A DNA stretch of 64,000 nucleotides, taken from assembly GCA_018223105.1 (NCBI GenBank), contig JAAEYY010000005.1, positions 64,918 to 128,917 on the forward strand, given 5' to 3'. The notes beneath the pieces are model-generated. The model saw nothing but the letters and a program-made list of their open reading frames with translations. It did no database searches and was not told the DNA's origin. Position numbers and translations under genes: made by a program. Positions 28,885 through 58,383 of this stretch are shown piece after piece. Origin of the DNA: a bacterium (GTDB taxonomy: Bacteria; Bacteroidota; Bacteroidia; NS11-12g; UBA9320). How positions within the stretch are numbered: position 1 is the first letter of the stretch; every line of letters starts with the position of its first letter.

Positions 28885-30111
28885 TTAATTAGCTTGCTTA
28901 AATGCAGTAGTTAATACATCAGTTTCACTTTGAATTTGTTCGTTCTCAAAACTATCCAAGTAGTTTTCAGTAACTCCCACGCTGCTATGTCCAAGCAATT
29001 CACTAATCATTTCAATAGTGGTCCCGGAACGTTTAAGAATTGTTGCAAAGCTATGTCGGGCAAAATATGTTGTAACCTCTTTGTTTATTCCAACTTCAGA
29101 AGCAATTTGCTTCATGTGCTTGTTGATTGATTTAGTAACAGACCAGTAAACATATTTTCTTTGTTCGGCATCCATATTGTTGTTGATGTGAGGAAAAATA
29201 TAAGCTTCCTTATTAATGGATAGCATTCCCCATTTTTCTATTATTCTAAGTGTTTCAGGTTTGAGGGCAACTGAGATTTGTTTGCTTTCCCGTCTGCTTC
29301 TTTTTGTCTTAGCCCGTCTGTATGTTAGCATATTGCCGTTAATATTGGACCACTTCAATAAGCAGAAGTCTTTTACATTCATACCATTACACAAGTATAA
29401 AAATAGCCAGTAGTCCTTAGCCTTGTCTTTTGCGCTTAATGGAGGACTTTCATAGTTGTAAATTTTTCCTATTTCATCAAGTGTCAAGGCCTTTTTGATA
29501 TTCTTACTGGTTGGTATTGTGTACTTGTTTTTACCTTTCCCAAATGGGTAAACCTTTGTGTTAATACTCTGAGAATTGTAGACCGTTCTCAAGCTTCTCA
29601 GATAAATACCGACTGTTGAGATGCTTTTGCCTTTGGTCATCATCCAATTTTCGTACTTCTTTAGAAATGATGGTGTAACTTCAGCAAAAGATAGATCTGA
29701 TTTATACTTGCTTAGGCTTACTTTGGCGTTGTGGTAGCTGTCTGCTGTTTTGAGTCTGTTTTCCAGTCGTAGGTTTTCAATGTATTTATCAAATGCGAAT
29801 GACACACTATCTGTTGTGTTCCTATGGTCCAAGTACATTTCTTGAAAAGCATCAAAAGAAAATACTGCTAGTGTTTTTATCACATCGTTAGCTTTATTCT
29901 CAAAGTATTCAGATTTGACCTTTAACTCTTTCTGTTCGTTGGTTTTTCTTTTTCCAAATAATGCCTGTTCAAACTCTTTCGACGTAGCATCTAATCCGGT
30001 GGAGTAGTATTTCCGTTTTCTGTTATAAGTTACTTTAATCTTGATTGAACACTTGCCGTTTTGCTTTGGTCGGTTTTGATCTAAATAAATAATGGCTGTT
30101 GCTTGATTCAT
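28885..30111 (-). CDS. Tyrosine integrase of element 1 (CTnDOT type)
   Basis: About 408 residues from the ATG giving MNQATAIIYLD. An arm-binding domain (residues 1-85, KIKVTYNRKRKYYSTGLD) and a SAM-like core-binding domain (about 95-195) precede the catalytic domain. Box II is FARHSFATILKRSG, followed by ELLGHSSVGVTENYL with His and the nucleophile Tyr. The usual first catalytic Arg is absent: the region reads YLCNGMNVKDFCLLKW, as in CTnDOT-like integrases. It lies 150 bases from the att copy at 30262, where its own element ends. Confidence 0.92.
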   Translation of the reverse strand: MNQATAIIYLDQNRPKQNGKCSIKIKVTYNRKRKYYSTGLDATSKEFEQALFGKRKTNEQKELKVKSEYFENKANDVIKTLAVFSFDAFQEMYLDHRNTTDSVSFAFDKYIENLRLENRLKTADSYHNAKVSLSKYKSDLSFAEVTPSFLKKYENWMMTKGKSISTVGIYLRSLRTVYNSQSINTKVYPFGKGKNKYTIPTSKNIKKALTLDEIGKIYNYESPPLSAKDKAKDYWLFLYLCNGMNVKDFCLLKWSNINGNMLTYRRAKTKRSRRESKQISVALKPETLRIIEKWGMLSINKEAYIFPHINNNMDAEQRKYVYWSVTKSINKHMKQIASEVGINKEVTTYFARHSFATILKRSGTTIEMISELLGHSSVGVTENYLDSFENEQIQSETDVLTTAFKQAN

Positions 30112-30261
30112 GTTTGTAACACAAATGTAACACAATAGCATATCAATATCACAAACTAAAGAACTATTAATACGTACTATAATGGCTTAGAAGAGCTAAA
30201 ATAAAAGGGGTATGCTTTGTTTTTGTTTTGAGTTGTTCAATTCTTGTTTTGTGTTGAAAAA

Positions 30262-33177: not shown

Positions 33178-33366
33178 ATGAATCGAATCAAAGAAGTGCT
33201 TGAAGAAAAAGGAATTAAGCAGACTTGGCTAGCTGAAAAACTTGGAAAGAGTTACAATATGGTGAACTCATATGTACAGAACAGACAGCAACCAAGACTT
33301 GAAGTGCTTTTCGAGATTGCCGAAATACTAGAAGTTAAACCACAAGACTTAATAAAAGACAAATAA
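33178..33366 (+). CDS. XRE-family regulator of the restriction locus
   Basis: A 62-residue helix-turn-helix protein, [12 protein letters not shown] then [19 protein letters not shown] and [16 protein letters not shown]. This is a minimal Cro/C-protein-like repressor often found directly before hsdM in Bacteroidota. The ATG at 33178 fits the family start; an in-frame ATG at 33136 would add 14 residues. Its TAA overlaps the ATG of the next gene by one base. It probably times expression of the restriction genes. Confidence 0.85.
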
Positions 33367-35510
33367 TGACAAGCATAAACCAAAGGGCTGAATTACAAGC
33401 TAAAATCTGGAAAATAGCAAATGATGTTCGTGGCTCAGTAGATGGATGGGACTTCAAACAGTTTGTGCTAGGAACGCTGTTCTACCGTTTTATCAGTGAA
33501 AATTTCACCAACTATATTGAAGGCGGTGATGAAAGCGTGAAATACCCAAGCCTTTCAGATGATGTAATTACACCCGAAATAAAGGATGATGCAGTTAAGA
33601 CAAAAGGCTACTTTATCTATCCAAGTCAACTTTTTGTCAATGTTGCCAAAACAGCGAATACCAATTCCAATCTTAACACCGACCTAAAAGCAATTTTTGA
33701 CTCAATTGAAAGTTCGGCAAACGGGTATCCCTCTGAACAAGACATTAAAGGATTGTTTGCTGATTTTGATACAACTAGCTCACGACTTGGTAATACCGTT
33801 GAAAACAAAAACAGCCGATTAGCATCCGTTATTAAAGGTGTTGAAGAGTTGAATTTTGGAAAATTTGAAGAAAGCGAAATAGAACTCTTTGGTGATGCCT
33901 ATGAATTTCTAATTGGTAATTATGCCGCCAATGCAGGAAAATCGGGTGGTGAATTCTTCACTCCTGTTCACGTTTCCAAACTCATTGCTCAATTGGCAAT
34001 GCATGGGCAAACCACCGTGAACAAAATTTATGACCCAGCAGCAGGTTCTGGCTCTTTGCTTTTACAAGCTAAAAAGCATTTTGATGACCACATCATTGAA
34101 GAAGGTTTCTTTGGGCAAGAGGTAAACCACACCACCTACAATTTGGCTCGTATGAACATGTTTTTACATAACATCAATTACGACAAGTTTCATATTGTAT
34201 TGGGTGACACATTAAGAAACCCACAACTAGCTGATGAAAAGCCCTTTGATGCCATTGTATCTAATCCGCCTTATTCTGTAAAATGGATAGGTGATGCTGA
34301 CCCCACCATGATCAACGATGACCGTTTTGCTCCTGCTGGTGTTCTTGCTCCTAAGTCAAAAGCCGATTTTGCCTTTGTACTTCATTGTTTAAGTTATTTA
34401 TCGAGCAAAGGTCGGGCTGCCCTAGTTTGCTTCCCTGGAATATTTTACCGTGGCGGTGCAGAACAGAAAATTCGAAAATACTTGGTTGATAACAACTATG
34501 TAGAAACAGTTATTTCATTAGCCCCAAATCTTTTTTATGGAACAACAATAGCGGTCAATCTTCTGGTACTTTCCAAACACAAAGCAGAAAATAAAACCCA
34601 GTTCATCGATGCAAGCGGTGAAGATTTCTTCAAGAAAGTAACCAACAACAATGTGATGACTGACAAGCATATTGCCAAGGTTGTGGAAATATTTGCTAGC
34701 AAGGAAGATATTGCGCATGTGGCAATCTCCATTGATAATTCTGCCATTGCTGAAAATGATTATAATTTGACCGTAAGTAAATACGTAGAACAAATAAGCA
34801 TACAGCAAGAGATTAATATTGATGATCTGAACGAAGATTTATATCAAACAGTTAACAAGATAAATTCCCTTCGCAATGACCTTAATGATTTAATAGAAAA
34901 TTTTACTGAAGACAATAACATTGATTTCATTTCAAAATTACTAGACGGGAGTTCGGTAGAATGGGTTACTCTTTCAGATATAGCCACGATTACAATTGGA
35001 GAATTTGTTCATAAAAGTAAGCAAGATGATTCTGCAGAATATCCAGTGTATAACGGTGGTATAACTCCAACAGGTTATTACAGCAAGTATAACAACACTG
35101 GGAATAAAATTATTGTTAGTGCCAGAGGTGCAAATGCTGGATTTGTAAATCGAATATCAACTCCATATTGGGCAGGAAATAGTTGCTATTCCGTTGGATT
35201 AATAAATCCAGAAAAAATCAATTGGATTTACATCTACTATTATTTGAAAGGGAACGAAAACCAATTGATTGGTGGACAGCAAAAAGGTGGTGGAGTTCCT
35301 GCAGTTTCTAAGAAACAGATGGAGTCATTCATGATACCAATTCCACCAATTGATGCACAAAATAGAATTGTTGACCTCATGGATGGATTGACAAGAACTA
35401 CCGCAGATTTAGAAGTGAAACTACAAAGCGAACTTGAAGCACGTAAAAGACAGTATGAATTTTACCGTGATATATTACTAACATTTCCTAAGGATAATTT
35501 AGAAGAATAA
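33366..35510 (+). CDS. Type I methyltransferase HsdM fused to a half HsdS
   Basis: A 714-residue fusion. Residues 1-520 are a complete HsdM: helical N terminus ([19 protein letters not shown]), SAM motif [12 protein letters not shown] at about 223, catalytic NPPYS at about 300, and the HsdM end [10 protein letters not shown]. From about residue 525 an HsdS begins without a break: [15 protein letters not shown] is the usual start of a specificity subunit, one target-recognition domain follows, and [20 protein letters not shown] is the usual HsdS C terminus. HsdS normally has two such domains; here only one. No separate hsdS exists. Dimerisation would predict a symmetric bipartite target. Confidence 0.9.
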
Positions 35511-35511
35511 C

Positions 35512-36624
35512 ATGGGACAGACGTTAATAGAAATAGCAACTAAGTTAAGGGATGCTAATAAAAAAGTGCAGTTAATCTATGCGTTTAACGGTTCAGGAAA
35601 AACACGTTTGTCTCGTGAGTTCAAAGAATTGATAGCACCAAAAAAACCTGAAAGTGAAGATGAAACTGGGGTTGAAGTCCTTTACTATAATGCCTTTACA
35701 GAAGATTTATTCTATTGGGATAATGATTTGGAAAACGATTCTGACAGGAAGTTAAAAATCCAGTCTAATGGTTACACCAATTGGGTACTTGTTGAACAAG
35801 GTCAAGAACCAAATATAGCGAGCCATTTTCAACGCTATACTAATGATAAACTAACACCAAAGTTTAACGAAGGATTTTCAGAAATCCGTTTCTCATTTGA
35901 AACAGGTGATGATTCAGATTCTGAATTTGTAAAGATTTCTAAAGGAGAGGAAAGCTGTTTTATCTGGAGCGTTTTTTACAGTTTGTTGGAGCAAACTATT
36001 AGTGTTTTAAATGTTGCAGAAGAAGCTGATCGAGAAACAGACCAATTCAACGACTTACAATACGTATTTATTGACGACCCAGTAAGTTCTTTGGATGACA
36101 CGCACCTAATTGAATTAGCGGTTGATATTGCTTCCTTAATTAAGTCCAGCACTTCTGAATTGAAGTTTATTATAACTACCCATAATCCATTATTCTACAA
36201 CGTTCTCTTCAATGAATTTAGTAGAGTGAAGAAAACGATGAAATGGCGTTTAGAAAAATTAATTGATGGTTCTTTTTCTCTTGCTGAGCAACCAAAAGAC
36301 TCTCCTTTCTCCTATCATCTATTTCTTTTATCTGAACTTGAAAAGGTGGTTGAATCAGGTGACATTCAAAAATATCACTTCAATTTTCTAAGAAATTTAT
36401 TCGAAAAGACTTCCACTTTTCTTGGCTTCAACAACTGGGAAGAACTGTTGCCCCAAGAATCAAGGCAAGCATATTATAATCGCATAATTAACCTATCTAG
36501 CCATTCAAAGCATAATGGTGAGGAAATTTCAATTATAGAAGAAAATGATAAGAGAGTATTGAGTTTTCTGGTAGGAGAAGTAAAAAGAATGTATGGTTTC
36601 AAATCCGCAGTTAATCAAGCATAA
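35512..36624 (+). CDS. PrrC-like anticodon nuclease candidate (AAA/ABC ATPase)
   Basis: A 370-residue protein between the methyltransferase and hsdR. The ABC-type ATPase part has Walker [12 protein letters not shown] (about 24-34), a signature-like ISKGEES, Walker [14 protein letters not shown] (about 184) and an H-loop ITTHNP (about 222). The C-terminal part contains R294-x3-E298 (RNLFE) and H331 (LSSHSKH). PrrC of E. coli uses Arg320, Glu324 and His356, nearly the same spacing, to cut tRNA-Lys. PrrC genes lie at the same place in type IC restriction loci. The alternative is an RloA-type ATPase without nuclease activity. The start codon is one base past the previous stop. Confidence 0.72.
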
Positions 36625-36633
36625 GAAAAGAAA

Positions 36634-39600
36634 ATGGCAACATATAAAACCATAGCGGAATCAAACAATTTCATCGTACTCGAAAAATATACGAAGTACT
36701 CTGAAGTGAATGAATCTCCTGCAAGCTATCAAACAGAGTCAGCTCTTGAGAGAGAGTTTATACAAGACCTAGTCAATCAAGGATATGAAAACCCTACAAA
36801 CCTAAATACCCTTGAAGCAATGCTGTCTAATGTAAGGGTGCAGTTGCAAGCTCTTAATGACATGGAATTTAAGGATGGCGAATGGGCTCGTTTTGTTGAG
36901 GAGTATTTAGATAAACCAGGAGATAACATTGTTGACAAGACAAGAAAAATACACGATAATTATATCTACGACTTTGTATTTGATGATGGCCATATCCAAA
37001 ACATCTATTTACTCGATAAGAAAAACATCGTTCGCAATAAAGTTCAGGTAATCTCTCAATTTGAGCAGACAGGTACACATGCCAATCGCTATGATGTGAC
37101 CATATTAGTGAATGGCTTGCCATTGGTGCAAGTAGAACTAAAAAAGCGTGGAGTTGCCATCCGTGAGGCTTTTAATCAAGTGCATCGCTACAGCAAAGAA
37201 AGCTTCAATAGTGAAAACTCTCTTTTTAAGTACTTACAGGTATTTGTCATTTCAAACGGCACGGACAGCCGATATTTTGCCAACACGGTAAAACGGGATA
37301 AAAACAGCTTTGACTTTACCATGAACTGGGCTAAAGCTGATAATTCCTTGATAAAGGATTTAAAGGACTTTACTCTTACATTTTTTGAAAAGCGTACGCT
37401 ACTAAATGTATTGGTCAATTATTCTGTATTTGATGTAAGTGATACTCTTCTAATCATGAGACCCTATCAAATAGCTGCAACCGAAAGAATTTTATGGAAA
37501 ATTGAAAGTTCTTATCAAGCTAAAAAATGGTCTACAAATGAAAGCGGTGGTTTCATTTGGCATACTACTGGGTCAGGTAAAACTCTTACCAGTTTTAAAG
37601 CAGCAAGACTAGCCACCCAACTTGACTTTATTGATAAAGTATTCTTTGTTGTTGACCGTAAGGATTTGGACTTTCAAACCATGAAAGAATATCAGCGGTT
37701 CTCCCCTGATAGTGTAAACGGTTCTGAGAGTACAGCAGGTTTAAAACGGAATATTGATAAAGAGGATAATAAAATTATAGTCACAACAATTCAGAAATTA
37801 AACAATCTGATGAAAAGTGAAAGTGATTTGGCTATCTATCAAAAACAGGTAGTATTCATCTTTGATGAAGCACACCGTTCACAATTTGGAGAGGCTCAAA
37901 AGAATCTTCAAAAGAAGTTCAAAAAGTATTTTCAATTTGGCTTTACTGGAACACCAATTTTCCCTCAAAATGCTTTGGGTTCTGAAACCACAGCAAGCGT
38001 TTTTGGACGTGAATTACATTCCTATGTAATTACAGATGCGATTAGAGACGAGAAAGTTCTCAAATTCAAAGTAGACTATAATGATGTCCGTCCGCAGTTC
38101 AAGGGCATTGAAACGGAAATTGACGAAAAGAAATTAAGTGCCGCAGAAAACAAAAAAGCTCTACTCCATCCTATTCGTATCAAAGAAATATCACAATACA
38201 TCTTACAGAATTTCAGACAAAAAACACATAGAACAAGAGGAGGAAATACTGGATTCAATGCCATGTTTGCCGTTAGTAGTGTTGACGCAGCAAAGTGCTA
38301 TTATGACGAACTGAACAACCTGCAAAATGACAGTGAAAAGCCTTTAAAAATAGCCACGATTTTTTCATATGCAGCCAACGAAGAACAAAACGCTATTGGA
38401 GAAATTGTTGACGAAACTTTTGAGCCTTCAGCAATGGATCAAAGCGCAAAAGAGTTCTTAAACAAAGCTATCAATGACTACAACACCATGTTTAAAACCA
38501 GTTATGGCGTTGAAAGTAAAGAGTTTCAAAACTATTACCGTGACCTTGCTAAAAGAGTAAAAAGCAAGGAGGTTGACCTAATTATTGTAGTCGGAATGTT
38601 CTTAACGGGTTTTGATGCACCCACATTAAACACATTATTCGTTGACAAAAACCTACGCTATCATGGTTTAATGCAAGCCTTCTCACGCACCAATCGAATC
38701 TATGACGCTACTAAAACATTCGGTAACATAATTACCTTCCGTGACTTAGAGAAAGCGACTGTTGATGCCATTACGCTGTTTGGAGACAGTAGCACCAAGA
38801 ATGTAGTCTTAGAAAAAAGCTATAAAGAATATTTAGAGGGCTTCACAGACATTGCAACAGGAGAAGCAAGAAGAGGATACATTGAAGTAGTAAATGAGCT
38901 AAATGCAAAGTTTCCTAACCCAGATGAAATAGCTACAGAGAAAGACAAAAAGGATTTTGCTAAGCTCTTTGGCGAGTACTTACGAGTTGAAAATATACTC
39001 CAGAACTATGATGAGTTCACCAACTTAAAAGATTTACAATCAGTCGATTTAAACGACCCAGAATCTGTTGAAGAATTCAAAGAATCTCACTTTGTAACAG
39101 ATGAAGACATTGCAGCAATGCAAGGAATTGAATTGCCAGCAGAACGTACCATTCAAGATTATCGCTCTACATATAATGATATTCGAGATTGGTTAAGAAG
39201 AGAGAAAAGTGGCAAGGAAGCCGAAGAATCAACAATTGATTGGGATGATGTAGTCTTTGAAGTTGACTTGCTTAAATCGCAAGAGATAAACCTTGATTAC
39301 ATTCTGGAACTAATCTTTGAACACAACAAGAAAACTAAGGACAAAGCCTCATTAATTGAAGAAATACGAAGAGTTATTCGTGCAAGTATCGGAAACAGAG
39401 CCAAGGAAAGTTTGGTGGTGGATTTCATCAATGAAACCGAACTTGATTCAATTCAGGATAAAGCGAGCATTATTGATGCTTTCTTCTCCTATGCACAAGG
39501 GAAACAAAAAGCAGAGGCAACCGAACTAATTACAGAAGAAAATCTAAATATCGAAGAAGCAAAAAGATACATTTCGGCTTCTTTAAGACGGGAATATGCA

Positions 39601-39741
39601 AGCGAGAACGGAACTGAACTGAATGCACTTTTACCAAAGATGAGTCCTTTAAATCCTCAGTATCTGACGAAAAAACAAAGTGTATTTCAAAAGATTTCTT
39701 CGTTTGTAGACAAATTTAAAGGTGTTGGAGGACAGATATGA
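36634..39741 (+). CDS. hsdR: Type I restriction endonuclease subunit HsdR
   Basis: A 1035-residue translocating endonuclease. The N-terminal PD-(D/E)XK nuclease shows [21 protein letters not shown]. The SF2 motor follows: Walker A HTTGSGKT (about 310), FDEAH (about 410), FGFTGTPI (motif III) and [11 protein letters not shown] (motif VI). A helical C-terminal domain fits assembly with HsdM. The size and the YQTE.ALE.EFI start match the type IC (EcoR124I-like) group, consistent with the fused HsdS part. It is the last gene of the operon, 9 bases after the ATPase gene. Confidence 0.95.
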
Positions 39742-46461: not shown

Positions 46462-46776
46462 ATGAATAAAGAAGCATTAGAAGATGTAATAGGATCTGAG
46501 ATATTCAAAGAAATGAATGTGACAATGCAGAATAATCAAAATATGGACCTCACTTTAGCAAATAAATCCTCCGTTCAACCACGGTATATGAGTGTGAAGT
46601 CTGCAGCAACATATTTAGGTGTTTCAAGTCGTACCATCTATCGGTGGATTGATAAAGGCCTCATACCGTATTGTACGATCCCCAGTGGATATAGGTTTGA
46701 TAAGCAAGAGATTGATAGGTGGATGAAAACACATCATGTACAGGAGACTGGATTGCCGGAAATAAAGGAGTTTTGA
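46462..46776 (+). CDS. Excisionase-family helix-turn-helix protein
   Basis: A 104-residue protein. The C-terminal half is a MerR-like excisionase domain: YMSVKSAATYLGVSSRTIYR, WIDKGLIPYCTIPSGYRF and DKQEIDRWMKTH. The first 45 residues are polar and probably disordered. It lies 6 bases before the integrase gene on the same strand, the usual xis-int arrangement. Confidence 0.87.
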   Translation: MNKEALEDVIGSEIFKEMNVTMQNNQNMDLTLANKSSVQPRYMSVKSAATYLGVSSRTIYRWIDKGLIPYCTIPSGYRFDKQEIDRWMKTHHVQETGLPEIKEF

Positions 46777-46782
46777 TAGGGT

Positions 46783-47991
46783 TTGGCAACGTTTAAGATC
46801 ATATTGGATAAAAGAGTTAAGTTAAACGATGGAAAACACAACGTTGCAGTCCGCATATTCGAGCAAAAAAGATTTGTGGACATATACCTTACCAAACTCA
46901 CAAAAGTTGAATTCAAACGACTTATGGACATCCAATATCGGGACAACACATCTATCCAATTCAGAAAAGAAATGGATCGATCCATTGAGAAGGCGAAGCA
47001 GGTCTACGATCAAGTTGGTAAATTGGATAGAAAGAAACTTAGAGAACTGTTCTTCGCACCTCCAATTCAAGATAAAGTACCATTAGTAAGTGATGTCTTT
47101 GATGATTACATCAAGACGAGTATGATTGCACATAAGACCAAACGACGATTGACCTACTCTAGTAACGTGGTGAATCGATACTATGAAAATCTGGAAGTTT
47201 CAGATGTGACCCCTAGGATGCTGAAGTCCTTTGAAAGAAAGTTGAGTGAAAATGGGTTAAGTGTAAGCACTGTAGCCTCGATTATGCGCGACCTGCGGGT
47301 AATCATCAATTATGCAATGGGTGATGGTAATTATAAACTTCCTGAAGAGTATCAATATCCATTTGGGAAAAGGAAGTATTCCATTTCCAGCTGCTCCTCA
47401 ACCAAGGCGGTCCTGACTCTGGAAGAAACGCAGAAATTGGCCGCATTTGATGAGTTCAATGGGGACAGGAAATTGGAATACGCCCGCGATATCTGGTTGT
47501 TTCTGTACCGCTGTTCAGGTATAAATTTCATCGATGCGTTGACCATGAAATGGAAAGACATCAAGAACAACATGATCGTAATCTTCCGTCATAAAACAAA
47601 GAATACTACGGTATACAATAAGCGTCCCCTGACGATTCCAATTACACCTAAGGTTCAGGAGTTGCTTGACAAACTGGGGGAGAAGGATAGTCCTTACATA
47701 TTGGGGTTACTTAAAGAAGGAGCAAAGGAAACTACGATAGACAATAAAGGTCACAAGGTTAGGCGCCAAGTAAATCTAAAATTAAAAGAATTGGAGTCTA
47801 TCCTAAGTCTCAGTGTTCCACTTAGAATAAAGACGGCCAGAGAAACCTACATAACCCATTCAATAAGAAATAACCAGAGTGTTTCCAAAGTGGCTACAAT
47901 GGTAGGACATTCATCAACTGATATGATTAAACATTACTATGGAGGATTGGATGATGCGGAGATAATGAGTTTTAATGATGATTTGGCGTGA
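46783..47991 (+). CDS. Tyrosine integrase of element 2
   Basis: A 402-residue integrase with a TTG start and MATFKIILDKRVKLNDGKHN, an arm-binding domain (about 1-85), a core-binding domain (about 95-200) and a catalytic domain. Box II is IKTARETYITHSIRN, followed by MVGHSSTDMIKHYYGG with the His and nucleophile Tyr. The first catalytic Arg is replaced (YRCSGINFIDALTMKW), like CTnDOT-type enzymes. It is distant from both att copies, which is unusual if it alone moves the whole 33-kb island. Confidence 0.9.
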   Translation: MATFKIILDKRVKLNDGKHNVAVRIFEQKRFVDIYLTKLTKVEFKRLMDIQYRDNTSIQFRKEMDRSIEKAKQVYDQVGKLDRKKLRELFFAPPIQDKVPLVSDVFDDYIKTSMIAHKTKRRLTYSSNVVNRYYENLEVSDVTPRMLKSFERKLSENGLSVSTVASIMRDLRVIINYAMGDGNYKLPEEYQYPFGKRKYSISSCSSTKAVLTLEETQKLAAFDEFNGDRKLEYARDIWLFLYRCSGINFIDALTMKWKDIKNNMIVIFRHKTKNTTVYNKRPLTIPITPKVQELLDKLGEKDSPYILGLLKEGAKETTIDNKGHKVRRQVNLKLKELESILSLSVPLRIKTARETYITHSIRNNQSVSKVATMVGHSSTDMIKHYYGGLDDAEIMSFNDDLA

Positions 47992-48091: not shown

Positions 48092-49372
48092 ATGAGCAAC
48101 GAGAATACCCTGAAATGTCCAAACTGTGGTCAACCGATAGACATAGATGAAGTACTCTATCACCAGTTACACGAGAAGGCCGCCAAGGAATTTGAAGAAG
48201 CAAGTAGAGAGCAAGAAAAAGTGTTAAGGGAAAGAGCGGCAGAACTTGAAGGTCAGAAGAAGAATTTGGAAGAAGAGAAGGAGAAGGTCGAGGAACTTAT
48301 CAGAGATGGTGTCAAAACCAAGCTGCGGAGTGAAAGACAAACACTTGAAAAGGAGTTGCGAGTTCAAATTCAGGAGGAAAAATCTGATCAAATAAAGACT
48401 CTTGAGGAAGAGGTCAAGGAGAAATCATCTCAACTCAAGGAGTTGAACAAGTTCAAGGCTCAGGTTCAGAAATTAGAACGTGAAAAGGATGAGATGAAGG
48501 ATGTGTTAGAGGCAGAGGCTGAGCAGAAATTGACCGAAGCCATCAAAGAAGAACGGGCCAAGATCAAGAAGGCGGAGGAAGAAAAAGTGGAACTGAAATT
48601 AGTTGAAAAGGACAACCTAATTCAGCAGTTGACAGAAAACCTCAAAGAGGCTCAACGAAGAGCGGAACAAGGATCGATGCAGTCGCAAGGTGAAGCCCAA
48701 GAATTGGCAATTGAAGAGTTCTTACGGGAGAGTTTTCCTCTTGACACCATAGGCGAAATCAAGAAAGGAGCAAGAGGAGCTGATTGCCTTCAAACCGTCA
48801 ATACACGGGTGAAGCAGAACTGCGGCACCATTTATTATGAGAGCAAACGTACCAAAACTTTCTCACTTGGTTGGATAGAGAAGTTCAGGAACGACATGAG
48901 GGAGAAGGGAGCAAATATTGGAGTAATCGTAACTGATGCTATGCCTTCTGATATGGATAGAATGGGCCAGAAGGAAGGGGTTTGGATCTGTACTTACTCA
49001 GAATTCAAAGGATTGTGTTTTGTTCTTAGAGAGTCAATTATTCAGATTAATAACGCGGTGGCCACCCAAGAGAACAAAGGAGACAAGATGGTGATGCTAT
49101 ATGACTTTTTAACCTCAAACGAATTCAAGTTGCAGGTTGAAGGTATTGTTGAAGGTTTCACTCAGATGAAAGAAGACCTTGAGAAAGAGAAGCGATCTAT
49201 CCAAGGCCACTGGAAGAGAAGAGAGAAGCAAATCGAAAAGGTGGTATTGAATACCAATTTCATGTACAACTCCATCAAGGGGATTGCTGGAAGTGCAGTG
49301 AGCTCCATCAAGCAACTCGAAATGGATGAGGATGATTCGTTGGCACTAGATGAAGGTACTGATCAAGAGTAA
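48092..49372 (+). CDS. DUF2130 protein (coiled coil plus nuclease-like domain)
   Basis: A 426-residue protein. A zinc-ribbon-like start (LKCPNCGQPIDIDE) leads into a long charged coiled coil, about residues 25-200. The DUF2130 domain follows (210-400): FPLDTIGEIKKGARGADCLQ, GTIYYESKRTKTFS, WIEKFRNDM. The acidic residue and ESKRTK fit a PD-(D/E)XK-like core. Proteins of this family are widespread and of unknown role; here it sits just after the integrase, among nuclease genes. Confidence 0.88.
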   Translation: MSNENTLKCPNCGQPIDIDEVLYHQLHEKAAKEFEEASREQEKVLRERAAELEGQKKNLEEEKEKVEELIRDGVKTKLRSERQTLEKELRVQIQEEKSDQIKTLEEEVKEKSSQLKELNKFKAQVQKLEREKDEMKDVLEAEAEQKLTEAIKEERAKIKKAEEEKVELKLVEKDNLIQQLTENLKEAQRRAEQGSMQSQGEAQELAIEEFLRESFPLDTIGEIKKGARGADCLQTVNTRVKQNCGTIYYESKRTKTFSLGWIEKFRNDMREKGANIGVIVTDAMPSDMDRMGQKEGVWICTYSEFKGLCFVLRESIIQINNAVATQENKGDKMVMLYDFLTSNEFKLQVEGIVEGFTQMKEDLEKEKRSIQGHWKRREKQIEKVVLNTNFMYNSIKGIAGSAVSSIKQLEMDEDDSLALDEGTDQE

Positions 49373-52305: not shown

Positions 52306-53415
52306 TCACTTTATTGAATCTAAGTTGTTTAGATTGATCAACTTTCCATTCTTATAACAAAGCTCAATTAGTTTAAGGAAAACTGATTCAAAATCTTCTT
52401 TAATCCGAGAGTAGATGAAATTGGCGAGGTCTTCTATTTGTGCTGTATTTAGTTCATACTCCTTGTAAAGGAAATGCGCAGTATATTTCCACGCTTTGTT
52501 ACTGAGTTTGAGTTTATGATTCAATGCTAAATTCTTGAATTTTGTTAAGGCTTCCTGTTGTGCCAGAGTTGAACTAAATTCAATAATAATGGTGATTTTG
52601 TTTTTCCCTTCCATCATTTCTTTGAAATTCACAGTGTAGTATATGTCTTTGTGATTTTCCCTACTCCAGAAGTTCAAATATTCATAGCGCGTACGGTTTT
52701 CTTTGTAGATGTCAAGGTTTAATAGCCGTGCTAATTTCTCCATTTGGTGCCAAACGTACCCTTGAGCTTTGTTTTTACTGTTAATAGCTGCTTCAACTTG
52801 AGATGTATGGTCAAAGAAGAATTTAACTTCGTCATTCATTGTATTACTTTTTGTATGGTTTGTTATTGTTTGAAAAAAATCATTTAAATAGATGTAAAGT
52901 TTAAGTGGTAGTCCAGAGGGTAGTCCACGATCACGTATCTCATTTATCCAATCTATGTGTTTAATATTAATGAACTCGCTCTTCACTTCATCTGGAATAG
53001 GGTGGTCTTCCAAAGTAAGGAGCACACCAATCCTTTTTTTATTGGAGTAATGATTCAAATAATCTTCTAAGGGATTGTTTAAATGATGGTATAATTTGTT
53101 TTCAATTATGATTACATACTCATCATCATCTATTGCAATATCGATAGAACCATTTTCTGTTTTTACTTCTGTGTCAACACTATAAGAATTAAAAGTCTCA
53201 CTAGGTATTACAATGTTTTCAGTATTGATAACCGAAATTAACGATTCAATAAACAACTGAGCCAAGCCCTCATTATTATCCGCATCGAGAAAGTAGGCAT
53301 ATATGTTGCTGTTTATGTTCTCGCGGTGAGACTTTCTTATGATCTCCAAGAAGCCGTCTTCAGGATTGTCATTTATTGGTATCTTTAGTTTTAATAACTC
53401 GTTAAGTTCGTTCAT
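52306..53415 (-). CDS. PD-(D/E)XK nuclease superfamily protein (PDDEXK_4 type)
   Basis: A 369-residue protein. The nuclease core is at about residues 65-150: GSIDIAIDDDEYVIIIENKL, then NPLEDYLNHY. The front (NELNELLKLKIP, HRENINSNIYAYFLD) is typical of PDDEXK_4 proteins, which are common defence-island members. The C-terminal 170 residues are a helical and beta domain, possibly for target binding. Activity is predicted from the Asp, Glu-Asn-Lys and Tyr residues. Confidence 0.8.
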   Translation of the reverse strand: MNELNELLKLKIPINDNPEDGFLEIIRKSHRENINSNIYAYFLDADNNEGLAQLFIESLISVINTENIVIPSETFNSYSVDTEVKTENGSIDIAIDDDEYVIIIENKLYHHLNNPLEDYLNHYSNKKRIGVLLTLEDHPIPDEVKSEFINIKHIDWINEIRDRGLPSGLPLKLYIYLNDFFQTITNHTKSNTMNDEVKFFFDHTSQVEAAINSKNKAQGYVWHQMEKLARLLNLDIYKENRTRYEYLNFWSRENHKDIYYTVNFKEMMEGKNKITIIIEFSSTLAQQEALTKFKNLALNHKLKLSNKAWKYTAHFLYKEYELNTAQIEDLANFIYSRIKEDFESVFLKLIELCYKNGKLINLNNLDSIK

Positions 53416-53518: not shown

Positions 53519-54985
53519 TTAAGGAACCTTTGAATTTAAATCGTTCAAAATCTCCACCATCGCCCTTGTATCCATCTTGCAATACTCTAATAAAGCTCTT
53601 CTTGTTCCCTCAATGTCTCCTTCAAAAGTTCCTTGAACCATGGTAAGAAATGTGCTGCTAGCTGTTCCTCCTTCTTGGATCTCAAGGTTAGAATATGACA
53701 GTTCTGGGATTAGCGCTGGAAGTACTTTTTTAATGGACGACCTTCCTTGCATCTCTTTTGTGTAGTAGTATTTCCTGCGGAATGGGATCTCAAGGTCTTC
53801 AACACGAGGAACTAAGGCATCTAGTGGTTCTCTGTATTGTGGGAAGTCTCGTGCTAGTTCATTAATCCTTGAGACCTCAAATGATGAGTGATAAGCTAAG
53901 ATGGTTCCTTCAGTGCCAAGATCCTTCAGCATTGCCTGTATCAGTTCTTCTCTTGGGTCACCACCTCCTGATGGAGCAAGGTATTCACAGTGTTCACAGT
54001 CTCCATTGGGTTGTTGTTGAATGTGAACAGAATACTGAAAGGGTATCTGCTGATAGGTTCTAGAATTATCGAACATAGGCACAGCAGGCATGATGGTCTC
54101 AAAATCAAAATGGTATATGGGGTAGGTAAGTGTTTGAAGGAAATTTGTAATGCCATCCTGATTTATGTATGGCTTACTGGTGAGCTCAGCATCGCGTTGG
54201 ATCTGTTGCGCATCGCTCAGGTTGATATCAAAGGGGATATCCTCTATCAATTCGATTCCTCGTTCATATAATTCCCATTGTTTACCTCTGGCTTGTGTCA
54301 AGTTGAATACCGAATACTCTGGAACCTCTTTCCAACAATACGCACAGAAATCACATTCGTATGGGTCGGAGCACTGTGGTCCTATCTCAATGTCAGGTTC
54401 ACTAACCTGTTCTTGTACCTGCTTGAGCTCTTCAATGATTAAGGGGAGCTCTTCTTGTTTAGCTAGAACCTCCTCCGTAACGTCGGTGGATTTGAACAAT
54501 TGATGTACATCCAATTCACCTTGGCGCACATATTCGCCATCAAAAGTGATGATTGATATATCTTTGAGATCAATTCCTGATCCCTTGATCACATGATATT
54601 GAATGGCAGCATCGGTAATGTGAGGATCTTTAACGGAGTTAGTACTCTTAACCTCGTAACCGTGCCATCCATCTTCTCTCCTAACAAGTATATCAATGGC
54701 CACTAAAACGTCATTGTAAACGAAGGTTGCTTCGTAAATGACCTTAGCTGCCATTTTGAGATAGGCTTGGGTATTCTTGATTACCTGAAAGTTAGGATAG
54801 GGCTCATCCTGTTGTGCATCTGCACCATTTGGAAACAACTGCTGAGCCATTAATCCTACATTGGTTCCAGAATCGAAAATAGCTTGTTGCTGGTCACTGA
54901 CCTCTCGTAGATCATAACGATGTTTATATAGCCAAAGTGATTTGTGGCACTGAAGGCCGCGGACAATTTTTGATTTGGAAAGCAT
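53519..54985 (-). CDS. DUF2779 protein: Cas4-like nuclease plus exonuclease-like domain
   Basis: A 488-residue protein. It starts like DUF2779/Cas4-type RecB nucleases (LSKSKIVRGLQCHKSLWLYK); the PD-(D/E)XK core is DILVRREDGWHGYEVKS and AIQYHV (about 95-130), and the iron-sulfur cysteines are in QCSDPYECDFCAYC together with the early Cys. The second half begins with YHFDFETI (about 290), a DEDD-type exonuclease-like motif. It is divergent from a WYL regulator and shares with it a palindromic site at 55006-55028. Confidence 0.85.
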   Translation of the reverse strand: MLSKSKIVRGLQCHKSLWLYKHRYDLREVSDQQQAIFDSGTNVGLMAQQLFPNGADAQQDEPYPNFQVIKNTQAYLKMAAKVIYEATFVYNDVLVAIDILVRREDGWHGYEVKSTNSVKDPHITDAAIQYHVIKGSGIDLKDISIITFDGEYVRQGELDVHQLFKSTDVTEEVLAKQEELPLIIEELKQVQEQVSEPDIEIGPQCSDPYECDFCAYCWKEVPEYSVFNLTQARGKQWELYERGIELIEDIPFDINLSDAQQIQRDAELTSKPYINQDGITNFLQTLTYPIYHFDFETIMPAVPMFDNSRTYQQIPFQYSVHIQQQPNGDCEHCEYLAPSGGGDPREELIQAMLKDLGTEGTILAYHSSFEVSRINELARDFPQYREPLDALVPRVEDLEIPFRRKYYYTKEMQGRSSIKKVLPALIPELSYSNLEIQEGGTASSTFLTMVQGTFEGDIEGTRRALLEYCKMDTRAMVEILNDLNSKVP

Positions 54986-55005
54986 GAAGCGAAGTTAAAG
55001 GGTAT

Positions 55006-55028
55006 GCTATGCCAAAGCCTGGCATAGC
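55006..55028. promoter_or_regulatory. Predicted WYL operator, site 1
   Basis: GCTATGCC and GGCATAGC form a perfect inverted repeat around a 7-base spacer, in the 69-base divergent gap between the DUF2779 and WYL genes. A near-consensus -7 box TAAATTTA (55042-55049) lies just downstream. The same palindrome recurs at 55966. Confidence 0.8.
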
Positions 55029-55054
55029 TATTTAATTCTTTGTAAATTTACAGT

Positions 55055-55966
55055 ATGCAGAATACAAAACGAATGAGGAAGTACATGAAGTTCTGTGAGT
55101 TTATTGAACAAAATCCCATGTGCTCCAAGCAAGATATTATTAGATACATGGAAAATGAATTGGATGAGTTGCTTTCAATTCGGACGTTTGAGAGAATGAA
55201 GAACGAGGTGGGAGATTTAGGGTATGACATCACGTACCACAATGAAGATGGAAAGCGTGGTTACACCATCGAGAAGGATGAATCTGTGGTCTTTGCAAAT
55301 ATGGATGAGTATGTGCAGCATGCGATGTCTTTCGGTTTTATGGTAGAGAGTTTAGAAGATGTGTCCGAAATGAAGAAGTTGGTCAGATTAACAAAGACTC
55401 TGCGTAAAGGCCTTGAGAATCTACCTGGATTGATGACTGCTTGTTTGAATAGGAAGGTTATAAAGTTTGACCATTTGACCTATCAAACTGGTGAATCAGT
55501 TAATAAAGAGATCAAACCTTTACAGTTAAGAGAGTATCAGGGACGATGGTATGTGGTAGGTCTTATAAATGAAGAGGGTGAAGAACACTTGCGCTCCTTT
55601 GGCGTAGATCGGATCGAAAATCTTGTAATAACCAAACGCGGATTTCGAAAAACGAAACAACAAGACCCAGATGAATACTATGCTCCACTTATGGGGATGT
55701 GGTCAATGGACGATGAAGATCCGGTTAAGGTGGTCTTAGAAGTAGATGCCAAAAACTGGAGATGGATTGATAGTTTACCCTGGCACGATTCGCAAAAACT
55801 CGAGTCTGAAAAAGAGGGTGTGGTCAAATTCAGTTTGTTGGTTAAACCTACTCTTGATCTGCAGCGTAGGATTATGCAATGGGCGCCTGAGGTGAAGGTG
55901 CTGAAACCAGTGTGGTATAGAAATCAGATCAAGAAAGTGTATGCAGATGGTTTGAGTACTTATTAG
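55055..55966 (+). CDS. WYL-domain transcriptional regulator
   Basis: A 303-residue regulator. The N-terminal winged helix covers about 1-75 (MCSKQDIIRYMENELDELLS, RTFERMKNEVGDLG), the WYL domain about 125-205 (IKPLQLREYQGRWYVVGLIN, then RSFGVDRIENL), and a C-terminal extension ends at DGLSTY. Proteins of this layout (BrxR, CapW) control phage-defence operons by binding inverted repeats. The 7-base-spaced palindrome stands on both sides of this gene, at its own promoter and before the DnaB-like gene. Confidence 0.9.
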   Translation: MQNTKRMRKYMKFCEFIEQNPMCSKQDIIRYMENELDELLSIRTFERMKNEVGDLGYDITYHNEDGKRGYTIEKDESVVFANMDEYVQHAMSFGFMVESLEDVSEMKKLVRLTKTLRKGLENLPGLMTACLNRKVIKFDHLTYQTGESVNKEIKPLQLREYQGRWYVVGLINEEGEEHLRSFGVDRIENLVITKRGFRKTKQQDPDEYYAPLMGMWSMDDEDPVKVVLEVDAKNWRWIDSLPWHDSQKLESEKEGVVKFSLLVKPTLDLQRRIMQWAPEVKVLKPVWYRNQIKKVYADGLSTY

Positions 55967-55987
55967 CTATGCCACAATTTGGCATAG
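55966..55987. promoter_or_regulatory. Predicted WYL operator, site 2
   Basis: CTATGCC and GGCATAG with the same 7-base spacer as site 1, directly between the WYL stop codon and the DnaB-like gene. The spacer sequences differ (AAAGCCT and ACAATTT) while the arms are identical, as expected for a protein-binding site. Confidence 0.8.
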
Positions 55988-56008
55988 GTGTCGATTAACC
56001 TTTGTTTC

Positions 56009-56983
56009 ATGAACCATCGTATGACTTCAATACAAGAACTTTTAGAGATCGGGGTAAACCGCTTAAAGTTTCCACAAGATTATGAGCGCAACTATAAAAC
56101 TGGATTTAAACATTTGGATGAGACCATTCCGTTTAAGGATGGCGAACTGGTAGTGATTGGAGCTAGACCAGGTATGGGAAAATCAGCATTCATGTTGAGT
56201 CTTGCTCTCAATTTTGCTAAAGAATATTCAGTCATCTATCATAGTACAGAGCACAGCCATTTTGAGTTGTTCCAACGAATCATTGCTCAGAAATCAGGAA
56301 TAGATATGGCTTATCTCAGGGGTTCAAAGTTGGAAGAGTATAAAATGAAAGTCATAGAAGATGGGAAAGAAGATGCAAGTACATTGTGGATGGATTTTTT
56401 AGATGGATATCCTGAACAGGTAGAACACTATTTTATAGACATTAAGGCTAAATTAGCAGAGGAATCTTGCGATATATTGGTCTTGGATTGTGCTGATATT
56501 CTTGGAAGCTCTATGATGTATGCTAGTCCAAAGATTAAGTGGAGGATGTTGGAAGGATTGAAGCAATTGAAAAAGTTTTGTGAAGCTCGAGCAATCTTAT
56601 TGATTATCTCTTCTCAACTTAGTCGACAGGTTGAATCGAGACAGGACAAACGCCCAGTACTATCAGATTTATTCTTGACAGGTTTGGAAGTCTGTAGCGA
56701 TAAGATTGCTTTTTTATACCGACCAGAGTATTATGGAATTACTCAAGACCATGAAGGAAATGACCTTTCAGGGTATGCTGAGTTTATAGTTCGCTTGAAC
56801 AAGAAAGGTATGACAGGCAGTTGTTCGATGCACTTTAACAATAGGTTTGGTAAGTTTGAGCAGTGGCAGACTCAAGACTATGGGGAGGAGGGAGATTCAA
56901 ATAGTTTTGAGTCATTTAAGGAGGACATAAAGGAGAAAATTAATGAAGTCAGGCGATTTGAAGTGGGGGGTGCGCCGTTTTAA
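56009..56983 (+). CDS. DnaB/KaiC-like RecA-fold ATPase
   Basis: About 324 residues. The RecA core has Walker A VVIGARPGMGKSAFMLS, a DnaB-like YHSTEHSHFELFQRIIAQKS, Walker B DILVLDCADILGSS, and a Q-loop region ISSQLSRQVE then LTGLEVCSDKIAFLYRPEYY, all features of the replicative helicase C-terminal domain. The DnaB N-terminal domain is missing. A GTG start at 55988 would touch the operator; ATGs at 56009 and 56021 are better. Control by the WYL site suggests it works with the DUF2779 nuclease in defence. Confidence 0.82.
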   Translation: MNHRMTSIQELLEIGVNRLKFPQDYERNYKTGFKHLDETIPFKDGELVVIGARPGMGKSAFMLSLALNFAKEYSVIYHSTEHSHFELFQRIIAQKSGIDMAYLRGSKLEEYKMKVIEDGKEDASTLWMDFLDGYPEQVEHYFIDIKAKLAEESCDILVLDCADILGSSMMYASPKIKWRMLEGLKQLKKFCEARAILLIISSQLSRQVESRQDKRPVLSDLFLTGLEVCSDKIAFLYRPEYYGITQDHEGNDLSGYAEFIVRLNKKGMTGSCSMHFNNRFGKFEQWQTQDYGEEGDSNSFESFKEDIKEKINEVRRFEVGGAPF

Positions 56984-57024
56984 TGAAAACAAGATAATGC
57001 AGGCCCATATAAACATATTATATA

Positions 57025-57675
57025 ATGAAATATCTAGAATTGTTTAACCATTTAGATAAATGGAAAGAGTTTCCAAATTATCAATTAGAACGCAGAGCTG
57101 ATATATTTTTTGCAATACATTTAAAAGAGGTTTTTAGAGAATTATGGCAAATTGAATTGGAAGATCCCATCCCAGAATTCCCAGTCCAAAAGAACAGTCT
57201 ACCAGCTCATGAAAAGTGGAATATTCAGCCATTAATTCGCCCAAATCAATCATTTCAAATAGACTATTTGGCATTTTCCCAATTTCCAACTCCTAAGGTA
57301 TTCTTAATTGAGTTTAAAACGGATATGGGTTCAAGAAATGAACGTCAGGATTGGTATTTACAGAAAGCAAAGGAAATTGGTCTAAAGAAATTGTTATCAG
57401 GTTTGAAAGAAGTTTACGAGGCAACGGATAAAAAATCAAAAAGGAAGTATGACAATCTCCTTGAAGTCCTAATTGATTTTAAATGGATTAACAGAAATGG
57501 CAATTCTTTCAATGTTAATGACATTGAATGTCCTGTAGAGGTTATTTACTTACAACCAACCAATCCTAATAATCAAGAATCTACTATAACGTTCTATGAT
57601 GTAAAATGGGCATTGTCAAAATCAAAAGATGAATTCACGGAAAGGTTTATTGCTTCTTTAAATTATTGGAAATGA
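57025..57675 (+). CDS. Probable PD-(D/E)XK-fold protein
   Basis: A 216-residue protein. The pattern FQIDYLAFSQF, then VFLIEFKTDMGSRN and RQDWYLQKAKE fits a restriction-nuclease-like core with Asp, Glu-x-Lys and a following Arg/Gln helix. The C-terminal half has a beta strand and a helix without known motifs. It is 41 bases after the DnaB-like gene in the same direction, so it may be part of that transcript and thus of the WYL-controlled set. Family not recognised. Confidence 0.65.
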   Translation: MKYLELFNHLDKWKEFPNYQLERRADIFFAIHLKEVFRELWQIELEDPIPEFPVQKNSLPAHEKWNIQPLIRPNQSFQIDYLAFSQFPTPKVFLIEFKTDMGSRNERQDWYLQKAKEIGLKKLLSGLKEVYEATDKKSKRKYDNLLEVLIDFKWINRNGNSFNVNDIECPVEVIYLQPTNPNNQESTITFYDVKWALSKSKDEFTERFIASLNYWK

Positions 57676-57789
57676 AGATGTACTTACGAAATAGTATAGT
57701 ACACTACCTTCTCGTCTTCAATAGTAAATTTAAAGGGTATATAAACGTACTTTCTTTTGTATGTGTTAGTTCAAACTATGTAGTTTTTA

Positions 57790-57797
57790 TACATTTG
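57790..57797 (+). promoter_or_regulatory. Candidate -7 element before the broken small gene
   Basis: TACATTTG matches TAnnTTTG and lies 20 bases before the ATG at 57818. Confidence 0.4.
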
Positions 57798-57817
57798 AGT
57801 ATAATTGATTGTCAAGT

Positions 57818-58021
57818 ATGACACCATTTGATTACTTATGAGGAGGAATAGTCTTTGTAGTTGTAGCTGTATTGTTCCTCGCCAATATATTCCCAGGTGA
57901 ATCTTCTGGTGAACATAAAGTAGAACCGAAAATCCGAGAAAATGAAGATGTAGAAGATTGGGAAGAGGATTACGAGGATTGGGGTGGCGAAAACCCAACT
58001 TGGGATGAAGATTATGACTAA
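57818..58021 (+). pseudogene. Small membrane protein gene with an in-frame TGA
   Basis: The frame reads MTPFDYL, stop (TGA at 57839), then GGIVFVVVAVLFLANIFPGE and an acidic tail with WEEDYEDW and PTWDEDYD to a TAA. If the TGA were TGG (Trp), the product would be a 67-residue protein with one membrane helix and a Trp/Asp-rich tail. A promoter-like box precedes it. Most likely a nonsense mutation made this a pseudogene; TGA readthrough or a restart at the TTG near 57869 are less likely. Confidence 0.5.
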
Positions 58022-58383
58022 GTTAGTAAACGTAGATTTTGCTATTGTTCTGCGCAATATGTTAAGCACAGTCAAACAAATAACTTCATTTAAGGGTTTT
58101 TAAGTCGCTTTCATTTTCTGTACAGGTAAGTGATATAAATTCAACAATTCGAAGCACTTCTAGTTGCCTTCTAACAATTCGAGCAATCTTGATGCATCTT
58201 AATCTCAACTCAGAGACCTGTCAACAAAAACAGATATTATTTTAAGGAAATCTCAAAAAATGGATTTCATGTTTTCAAGTGTTACAAGCTGCTGGTAATT
58301 TTTTAATAAACTGAAATGTAGATCTTATGAAAATTGTATTTGATGAAAAGTTCTATCGCTATGATGAATGGTGCCTCTTACTT
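58022..58383. other. Gene-free region
   Basis: About 360 AT-rich bases. CAATTCGAAGCA and CAATTCGAGCAA form a short direct repeat near 58145 and 58172. A 22-codon frame, MKIVFDEKFYRYDEWC and so on, occupies 58327-58395 and could be a gene remnant. Nothing else was found. Confidence 0.3.

What the first reader, a model, noticed from the sequence alone, without database searches (positions are those of the whole stretch)
53519..57675. WYL regulon: one operator at two promoters links a DUF2779 nuclease, a WYL protein and a DnaB-like ATPase
GCTATGCC-N7-GGCATAG(C) occurs at 55006-55028 in the DUF2779/WYL divergent promoter and again at 55966-55987 before the ATPase. Arms match exactly, spacers differ. 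WYL regulators BrxR and CapW bind such repeats before defence operons. A Cas4/exonuclease-like protein with a helicase-like ATPase and a possible PD-(D/E)XK protein would make a new WYL-controlled defence module.
Basis: partly seen in the sequence, partly recalled or inferred. Interest (0 to 1): 0.78.

Follow-up and report, generated by a model that had tools for sequence, protein, structure and literature searches.

The report
Two-switch nuclease and mock-helicase locus
A bacterial regulator of the kind that often controls anti-virus genes has exactly two matching switch sites in its genome, one in front of a double nuclease and one in front of a shortened, altered copy of the DNA-replication helicase, and a distant bacterium carries the same partners, again with one promoter element repeated twice.

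Summary
The palindrome is 9 bp–N5–9 bp (not 8–N7–8) at 55006-55028 and 55966-55988. These are the only two sites in the 3.09-Mb genome at up to 3 mismatches (control 0). Each ends exactly 20 nt before an ATG (DUF2779 and the ATPase). The 5-bp spacer, and a second site just behind the regulator gene, match the published BrxR layout.

The DUF2779 protein is a Cas4-like nuclease joined to a polymerase-B-type 3'-5' exonuclease (confident model). The ATPase is a DnaB C-terminal domain without the N-terminal domain and with the arginine finger changed to Lys.

In 80 DUF2779 loci from GTDB, one (Salibacteraceae, L195) again has WYL, DUF2779 and a short DnaB with the same R-to-K change, and again one promoter element repeated at two genes in register with the start codons. 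WYL genes lie within 6 kb of DUF2779 in 10 of 88 other groups (0.29 expected). The exact gene order is not conserved, and most DUF2779 genes have no WYL nearby.

Best reading: a WYL-repressed, probably anti-phage, nuclease plus degenerate-helicase module; a new variant of the BrxR/CapW kind. DNA binding, induction and defence are untested.

The parts
53519..54985 (-). DUF2779 protein, 488 aa: Cas4-like PD-(D/E)XK nuclease with four cysteines (C13, C205, C211, C217) plus DEDD-type 3'-5' exonuclease domain; promoter in operator 1
   Evidence: PF11074 E 5.3e-43; D98, E111, K113, D294, E296, Y468, D472 invariant in 28 sequences, cysteines invariant or nearly so; AlphaFold pLDDT 93.7; Foldseek Cas4 8d3l/4r5q prob 1.00; polymerase-B exonuclease Z 14-16 for residues 287-488
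55006..55028 (.). operator 1, perfect 9-N5-9 palindrome between divergent DUF2779 and WYL genes; ends 20 nt before the DUF2779 ATG
55055..55966 (+). WYL-WCX regulator, 303 aa, with an N-terminal helix of the type S-x-R-T-x-E-R
   Evidence: PF13280 45.1 bits, PF25583 36.6 bits, both over cut-off; helix alignment
55966..55988 (.). operator 2, 9-N5-9 palindrome with one outer mismatch, overlapping the last base of the WYL stop codon; ends 20 nt before the ATPase ATG
56009..56983 (+). short DnaB-like ATPase, 324 aa: DnaB C-terminal domain only; Walker A kept; arginine finger R to K, hairpin K to L, DNA-loop RES changed to FLT
   Evidence: PF03796 E 2.1e-41; alignment with host DnaB; column counts
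57025..57675 (+). 216-aa protein, co-directional 41 nt behind the ATPase; conserved YQLERR...D, IDYL, E-F-K-T-D (PD-(D/E)XK-like motif); fold not shown
   Evidence: relatives L168, L169 and L179 beside DUF2779; no Pfam or NCBIfam family; model pLDDT 35.6

Best explanation
A WYL-WCX dimer sits on two near-identical operators and keeps two promoters silent: the one for the DUF2779 double nuclease (shared with its own gene) and the one for the short DnaB-like ATPase and the 216-aa protein behind it. A nucleic-acid or nucleotide signal made during phage or mobile-element replication releases it, and all effectors are made together. The nuclease (Cas4-like end plus 3'-5' proofreading-type exonuclease) then degrades DNA. 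The short DnaB, unable to act as a normal hexameric helicase, most likely joins or occupies replication-fork complexes (DnaB hexamer or its loader), halting forks and giving the nuclease ends to attack. Shown here: sequence anatomy, operator uniqueness, repeated-promoter design in a second locus, enzyme domains, altered DnaB residues. Inferred: repression, ligand, joint action, target and anti-phage role. The helicase-poison step is the least sure (about 0.3 by itself).
For: Operators: only two in the genome, same 20-nt distance to both effector ATGs, 5-bp spacer and second box behind the regulator as published for BrxR (PMC9122601 passages; PMC9122589 passages); CapW sites are 19-24-bp palindromes over promoters (PMC9122588 passages). 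Second locus L195: WYL, AAA/M41, three small genes, DUF2779, short DnaB on one strand; its two promoters share a 59-nt in-register element (score 21; 40 shuffled sets 12.7 +/- 1.2, maximum 15); the same pairing in the window scores 19 (shuffles 11.1 +/- 1.4, maximum 16). Inner half-site TGGCA is in both loci and the RTxER helix in both and in no other of the 38 WYL rows aligned, one of which is the window protein a second time. Arginine finger: R in 87 of 89 DnaB-type rows with a residue there; the two exceptions (K) are the window protein and L195's. WYL within 6 kb of DUF2779 in 10 of 88 groups besides the window, 0.29 expected; the 10 neighbour WYL proteins scanned all pass the Pfam cut-offs. 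Neighbouring PDC-S26 candidate and type I RM with PrrC make this a defence-rich stretch.
Against: No binding or expression data. 78 of 89 DUF2779 groups have no WYL gene within 6 kb, and many Ignavibacteria copies sit in a fixed chromosomal setting that does not look like defence. The exact gene set is not found again; only 1 of 80 GTDB loci has DUF2779 with a short DnaB. The short DnaB of G012 lies beside a reverse transcriptase, not DUF2779, and keeps its arginine finger. The host's own DUF2779 paralogue (64% identical) has no such operator. Of ten other DUF2779+WYL loci tested none shows a repeated promoter apart from tandem gene copies in L213. PADLOC has no model for the set.
Confidence: 0.55

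Rival explanations
1. The WYL protein controls a DNA-repair or genotoxic-stress regulon (as PafBC, DriD or SiwR do), with a nuclease and a helicase-like ATPase serving fork repair rather than defence.
For: DUF2779 in Ignavibacteria has a fixed non-defence neighbourhood; PafBC and DriD respond to ssDNA (starts of abstracts in the search listing); the double nuclease resembles repair enzymes.
Against: Patchy distribution: DUF2779 in 18 other genomes of 395 and no close WYL relative in 84,980 genomes; island with integrase, RM and PDC-S26 genes; DnaB residues thought necessary for a working helicase are changed.
Confidence: 0.2
2. The genes belong to the biology of an integrated mobile element: the short DnaB and nuclease serve its own replication or exclusion of rival elements, and the WYL protein is its switch.
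For: Integrase-like gene 46783-47991 and HTH gene 46462-46776 lie upstream (names by eye); GTDB relatives do not share the locus.
Against: A replication helicase should keep the arginine finger and DNA loops, which are changed here. Element ends were not searched for.
Confidence: 0.12
3. The short DnaB is a decaying duplicate of the host DnaB and only the WYL/DUF2779 part is functional.
For: Best match anywhere is the host's own DnaB, 38%; long branch, weakly joined to the DnaBs of its own and two related genera (91/66).
Against: Open frame with Walker A intact, an in-register operator of its own, and the same R-to-K change beside DUF2779 in L195.
Confidence: 0.08
4. The palindromes are bound by another regulator, or are unrelated to the WYL protein.
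For: No binding data; WYL regulation here rests on position.
Against: Only two sites in the genome, both flanking the WYL gene; BrxR-like geometry.
Confidence: 0.05

Closest known systems
BrxR of the pEFER and Acinetobacter BREX islands
   Same: WYL-WCX protein; inverted repeats with a 5-bp spacer; two boxes in pEFER, one before the regulator and one behind it before the first defence gene (PMC9122601, passages; PMC9122589, passages)
   Different: No BREX system among the proteins scanned; operator 1 lies in a divergent promoter that drives a DUF2779 nuclease; arms 9 bp, nearly identical in both boxes
CapW of CBASS
   Same: WYL dimer repressor with a 19-24-bp palindrome overlapping the promoter of an immune operon (PMC9122588, passages)
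   Different: No CBASS gene among the proteins scanned; two operators instead of one
Cas4 / solo-Cas4 and UvrD-Cas4 fusions
   Same: Cas4-like nuclease with four cysteines beside a helicase-type partner and sometimes a WYL regulator (PMC5704561, passages)
   Different: Nuclease fused to a 3'-5' exonuclease (DUF2779); partner is a degenerate DnaB, not UvrD; Cas4 Pfam score under its cut-off
Replicative helicase DnaB
   Same: C-terminal RecA-type domain, Walker A, closest to the host's own DnaB
   Different: No N-terminal domain; arginine finger, hairpin lysine and DNA-loop residues changed
DUF2779 / RNase H-like family F.17
   Same: Predicted 3'-5' exonuclease with DUF83 (PMC3985635, passages)
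   Different: That paper gives no operon, regulator or role in the passages seen

Membership tests
BrxR/CapW-type WYL regulators | WYL domain followed by WCX domain | tested here: met
   PF13280 45.1 bits (cut-off 21.8), PF25583 36.6 bits (23.9)
BrxR/CapW-type WYL regulators | N-terminal winged helix-turn-helix | tested here: inconclusive
   No Pfam HTH hit; a helix of the S-x-R-T type aligns with other WYL regulators
BrxR/CapW-type WYL regulators | inverted repeat of about 20-27 bp (5-bp spacer in BrxR) at the promoter of the controlled genes | tested here: met
   9-N5-9 before two genes
BrxR/CapW-type WYL regulators | sits in front of a known defence system | tested here: not met
   No BREX or CBASS system among the window proteins scanned (one weak BrxC hit, E 0.013, to a coiled-coil-like protein at 48092-49372); PADLOC knows no system for these effectors
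BrxR/CapW-type WYL regulators | represses until a ligand binds | not testable with these tools
   needs protein
Cas4 | DUF83 profile | tested here: not met
   19.7 bits against a cut-off of 22.7
Cas4 | D-ExK site and four cysteines | tested here: met
   invariant or nearly invariant columns
Cas4 | beside cas1/cas2 | tested here: not met
   no cas1/cas2 model among the scanned neighbours (only part of the window's proteins)
DnaB replicative helicase | C-terminal RecA-type ATPase | tested here: met
   PF03796 2.1e-41
DnaB replicative helicase | N-terminal domain | tested here: not met
   324 aa, aligns only to the C-terminal part of host DnaB; far under the DnaB equivalog cut-off, 140 of 385 bits
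DnaB replicative helicase | arginine finger | tested here: not met
   K instead of R, 87 of 89 rows have R; residue roles recalled from E. coli DnaB
PD-(D/E)XK nucleases (216-aa protein) | conserved D...ExK on the nuclease fold | tested here: inconclusive
   motif kept in the window protein and three relatives; model pLDDT 35.6

The most novel reading that the evidence does not exclude
A new kind of immune module in which a truncated, arginine-finger-less copy of the replicative helicase, released by a WYL switch, invades DnaB hexamers or occupies the loader at replication forks and delivers a two-headed nuclease (Cas4-like plus proofreading-type exonuclease) to them. The window and the Salibacteraceae locus would be two ancient or convergent versions.
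Probability: 0.25. Interest if true: 0.85.

Novelty: new variant of a known kind. Interest (0 to 1): 0.62.

Why it matters
It gives a compact WYL regulon with two clean operators and defined effectors, ready for a binding and reporter test. The recurrence of a short DnaB with the same arginine-finger change beside DUF2779 in two far-apart loci suggests that a domesticated replication helicase may serve as an immune effector, a use I did not meet in the listings of the paper searches (open-access library only). It also gives DUF2779, a family without known role, a testable setting.

Tried and rejected
Close relatives of the WYL protein: none in viral contigs or in 84,980 species genomes; only distant WYL proteins in plasmids, phages and relatives. 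Close relatives of the short DnaB in 395 genomes, 58 relatives, viral contigs, plasmids and phages: full-length DnaBs as far as seen, except G012. A search with L195's short DnaB in 365 genomes listed no frame under 400 aa among the rows shown (more matches were not listed). The 216-aa protein: nothing in plasmids or viral contigs, two relatives in other settings, structure unusable. The exact 8-N7-8 palindrome in viral contigs: 7 places, none with a WYL or DUF2779 hit on the stretch held. Common origin of the three short DnaBs: neither shown nor rejected (p-AU 0.127); window residues point both ways (12 host-type, 22 shared with a short DnaB). A first scoring of L195's promoter pair with mismatch -2 was within chance (12 against shuffles 10.85, maximum 14); the -1 scoring, which carries the element on to the start codon, is far outside; this change of scoring was made after the pair had been seen by eye. 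DUF2779 in solved structures by sequence: no useful hit. WYL in solved structures: three weak hits.

Full report
Observation. The two palindromes are real and at the stated coordinates. They read best as 9-bp arms with a 5-bp spacer. In the 3.09-Mb genome the 9-N5-9 pattern at up to three mismatches occurs at these two places only, with no match for the reversed control. The two copies are placed alike: in both, 20 nt separate the operator from an ATG, that of DUF2779 on the minus strand and that of the ATPase on the plus strand, and both have TTTG at the edge of the right arm and a TAnnTTTG-like box one mismatch off just before the ATG. That these boxes are Bacteroidota promoter elements is recalled, not tested. 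The WYL ATG is 26 nt from operator 1.

Proteins. The regulator is WYL-WCX. The DUF2779 protein gave a confident model (pLDDT 93.7): Foldseek finds Cas4 (probability 1.00) and VIA-align places residues 287-488 on the exonuclease domain of family-B polymerases (Z 14-16). The catalytic residues of both sites are invariant in 28 sequences. A 2014 survey already predicted a 3'-5' exonuclease with a DUF83 part for this family (PMC3985635, passages). The ATPase is a DnaB C-terminal domain. Its best match anywhere is the host's own DnaB (38%), and its tail (FGKFxxW...YG) resembles that of DnaBs from its own and related genera. It lacks the N-terminal domain. Of 90 DnaB-type rows, 89 have a residue at the arginine-finger column and 87 of these have R; the window protein and the one of L195 have K. 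The window protein alone has L at the hairpin lysine (K in 88) and F at the DNA-loop arginine (R in 86, K in 1, S in the G012 protein counted twice). Functional names of these columns are recalled from E. coli DnaB.

Relatives. DUF2779 relatives (E up to 1e-30) occur in 18 other genomes of 395. Their stretches and that of the host's 64% paralogue hold no DnaB-like neighbour. A GTDB scan kept the best 80 of 404 confirmed DUF2779 loci. One of them, L195 (Salibacteraceae bacterium M30B54, JAGYJZ010000003.1), holds on one strand a WYL gene, an AAA/M41 gene, three small genes, DUF2779 and, 6 nt behind it, a 343-aa short DnaB. The proteins are far from those of the window: 29% (WYL), 27% (short DnaB), 46% (DUF2779). 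One further locus, L179, has a relative of the 216-aa protein directly behind DUF2779.

Second repeated promoter. In L195 the regions before the AAA gene and before the operon with DUF2779 and the short DnaB align without gaps over 59 nt down to the ATG (score 21; 40 shuffled sets 12.7 +/- 1.2, maximum 15). An earlier, stricter scoring did not separate it from chance. The core AGTCCGACA-N4-TTGGCAGA-N-CGGGT contains an imperfect inverted repeat with a 5-bp spacer in one copy (7 of 11 pairs, no better than other dyads of that region), and its TGGCA equals the inner half-site of the window's operator. Both WYL proteins have R-T-x-E-R in the helix where the other WYL rows aligned have other letters. 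Of eleven other loci tested the same way (ten with DUF2779 and WYL, plus L097) only L213 exceeded its shuffles, through tandem gene copies.

Linkage. WYL proteins are the family that recurs most often within 6 kb of DUF2779: 11 of 89 groups with the window, 10 of 88 without it. From 22 WYL domains in 19 DUF2779-bearing genomes (76.7 Mb) 0.29 would be expected in the 1.02 Mb examined (Poisson P about 1e-12; detection differed, blastp clusters against a Pfam search). The ten scanned pass the Pfam cut-offs. Still, 78 of 89 groups have no WYL gene that near, and in Ignavibacteria DUF2779 has constant non-defence neighbours.

Mechanism. Regulation as in BrxR is well supported by geometry: pEFER has R-BOX1 before brxR and R-BOX2 behind it, each with a 5-bp spacer (PMC9122601, passages), and the Acinetobacter complex has five base pairs between half-sites (PMC9122589, passages). 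Overlap of operator and presumed promoter suggests repression; this is inferred. The shared control argues that nuclease and short DnaB act together. A DnaB fold without finger and N-terminal domain is hard to see as a helicase, so a fork- or loader-directed poison or adaptor is my preferred but unproven role. Defence is favoured by the regulator class and by neighbours such as a PDC-S26 candidate at 52306-53415 and a type I RM set with PrrC at 33366-39741; repair or element biology remain rivals.

Phylogeny. The short DnaBs of L195 and G012 group together (95/98; 87/98). The window's lies on a very long branch by the DnaBs of its own and two related genera (91/66). Union of all three is not rejected (p-AU 0.127). 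Whether the pairing with DUF2779 is ancient or arose twice is open.

Verdict.

Noticed in passing
window 33366-39741: Type I RM set with an anticodon-nuclease PrrC gene (E 1.9e-141) between the HsdM/HsdS-like and HsdR genes.
   Followed up: partly
window 52306-53415: Protein matching PADLOC candidate PDC-S26 (1.7e-38) with a PD-(D/E)XK nuclease domain, next to the DUF2779 gene.
   Followed up: no
window 46462-47991 and 28885-30141: Two genes that look like tyrosine integrases by eye, the first with an HTH excisionase-like gene: probable integrated elements; ends not searched.
   Followed up: no
G000 C42:51349-52803 (L078): Second DUF2779 gene of the same genome, 64% identical, a few genes upstream of type I RM-like genes, without the operator.
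   Followed up: partly
L160 9177-16653 (G012): Another short DnaB (347 aa, arginine finger kept) beside a reverse transcriptase like those of defence RT systems and a 1599-aa double helicase.
   Followed up: partly
L079/L185, L176, L182, L204: A 357-409-aa AAA protein lies directly beside DUF2779 with a WYL gene close by: a second recurring WYL, ATPase and DUF2779 arrangement.
   Followed up: partly
window 57676-58383: About 700 bp without a convincing gene between the 216-aa gene and the next minus-strand genes.
   Followed up: no
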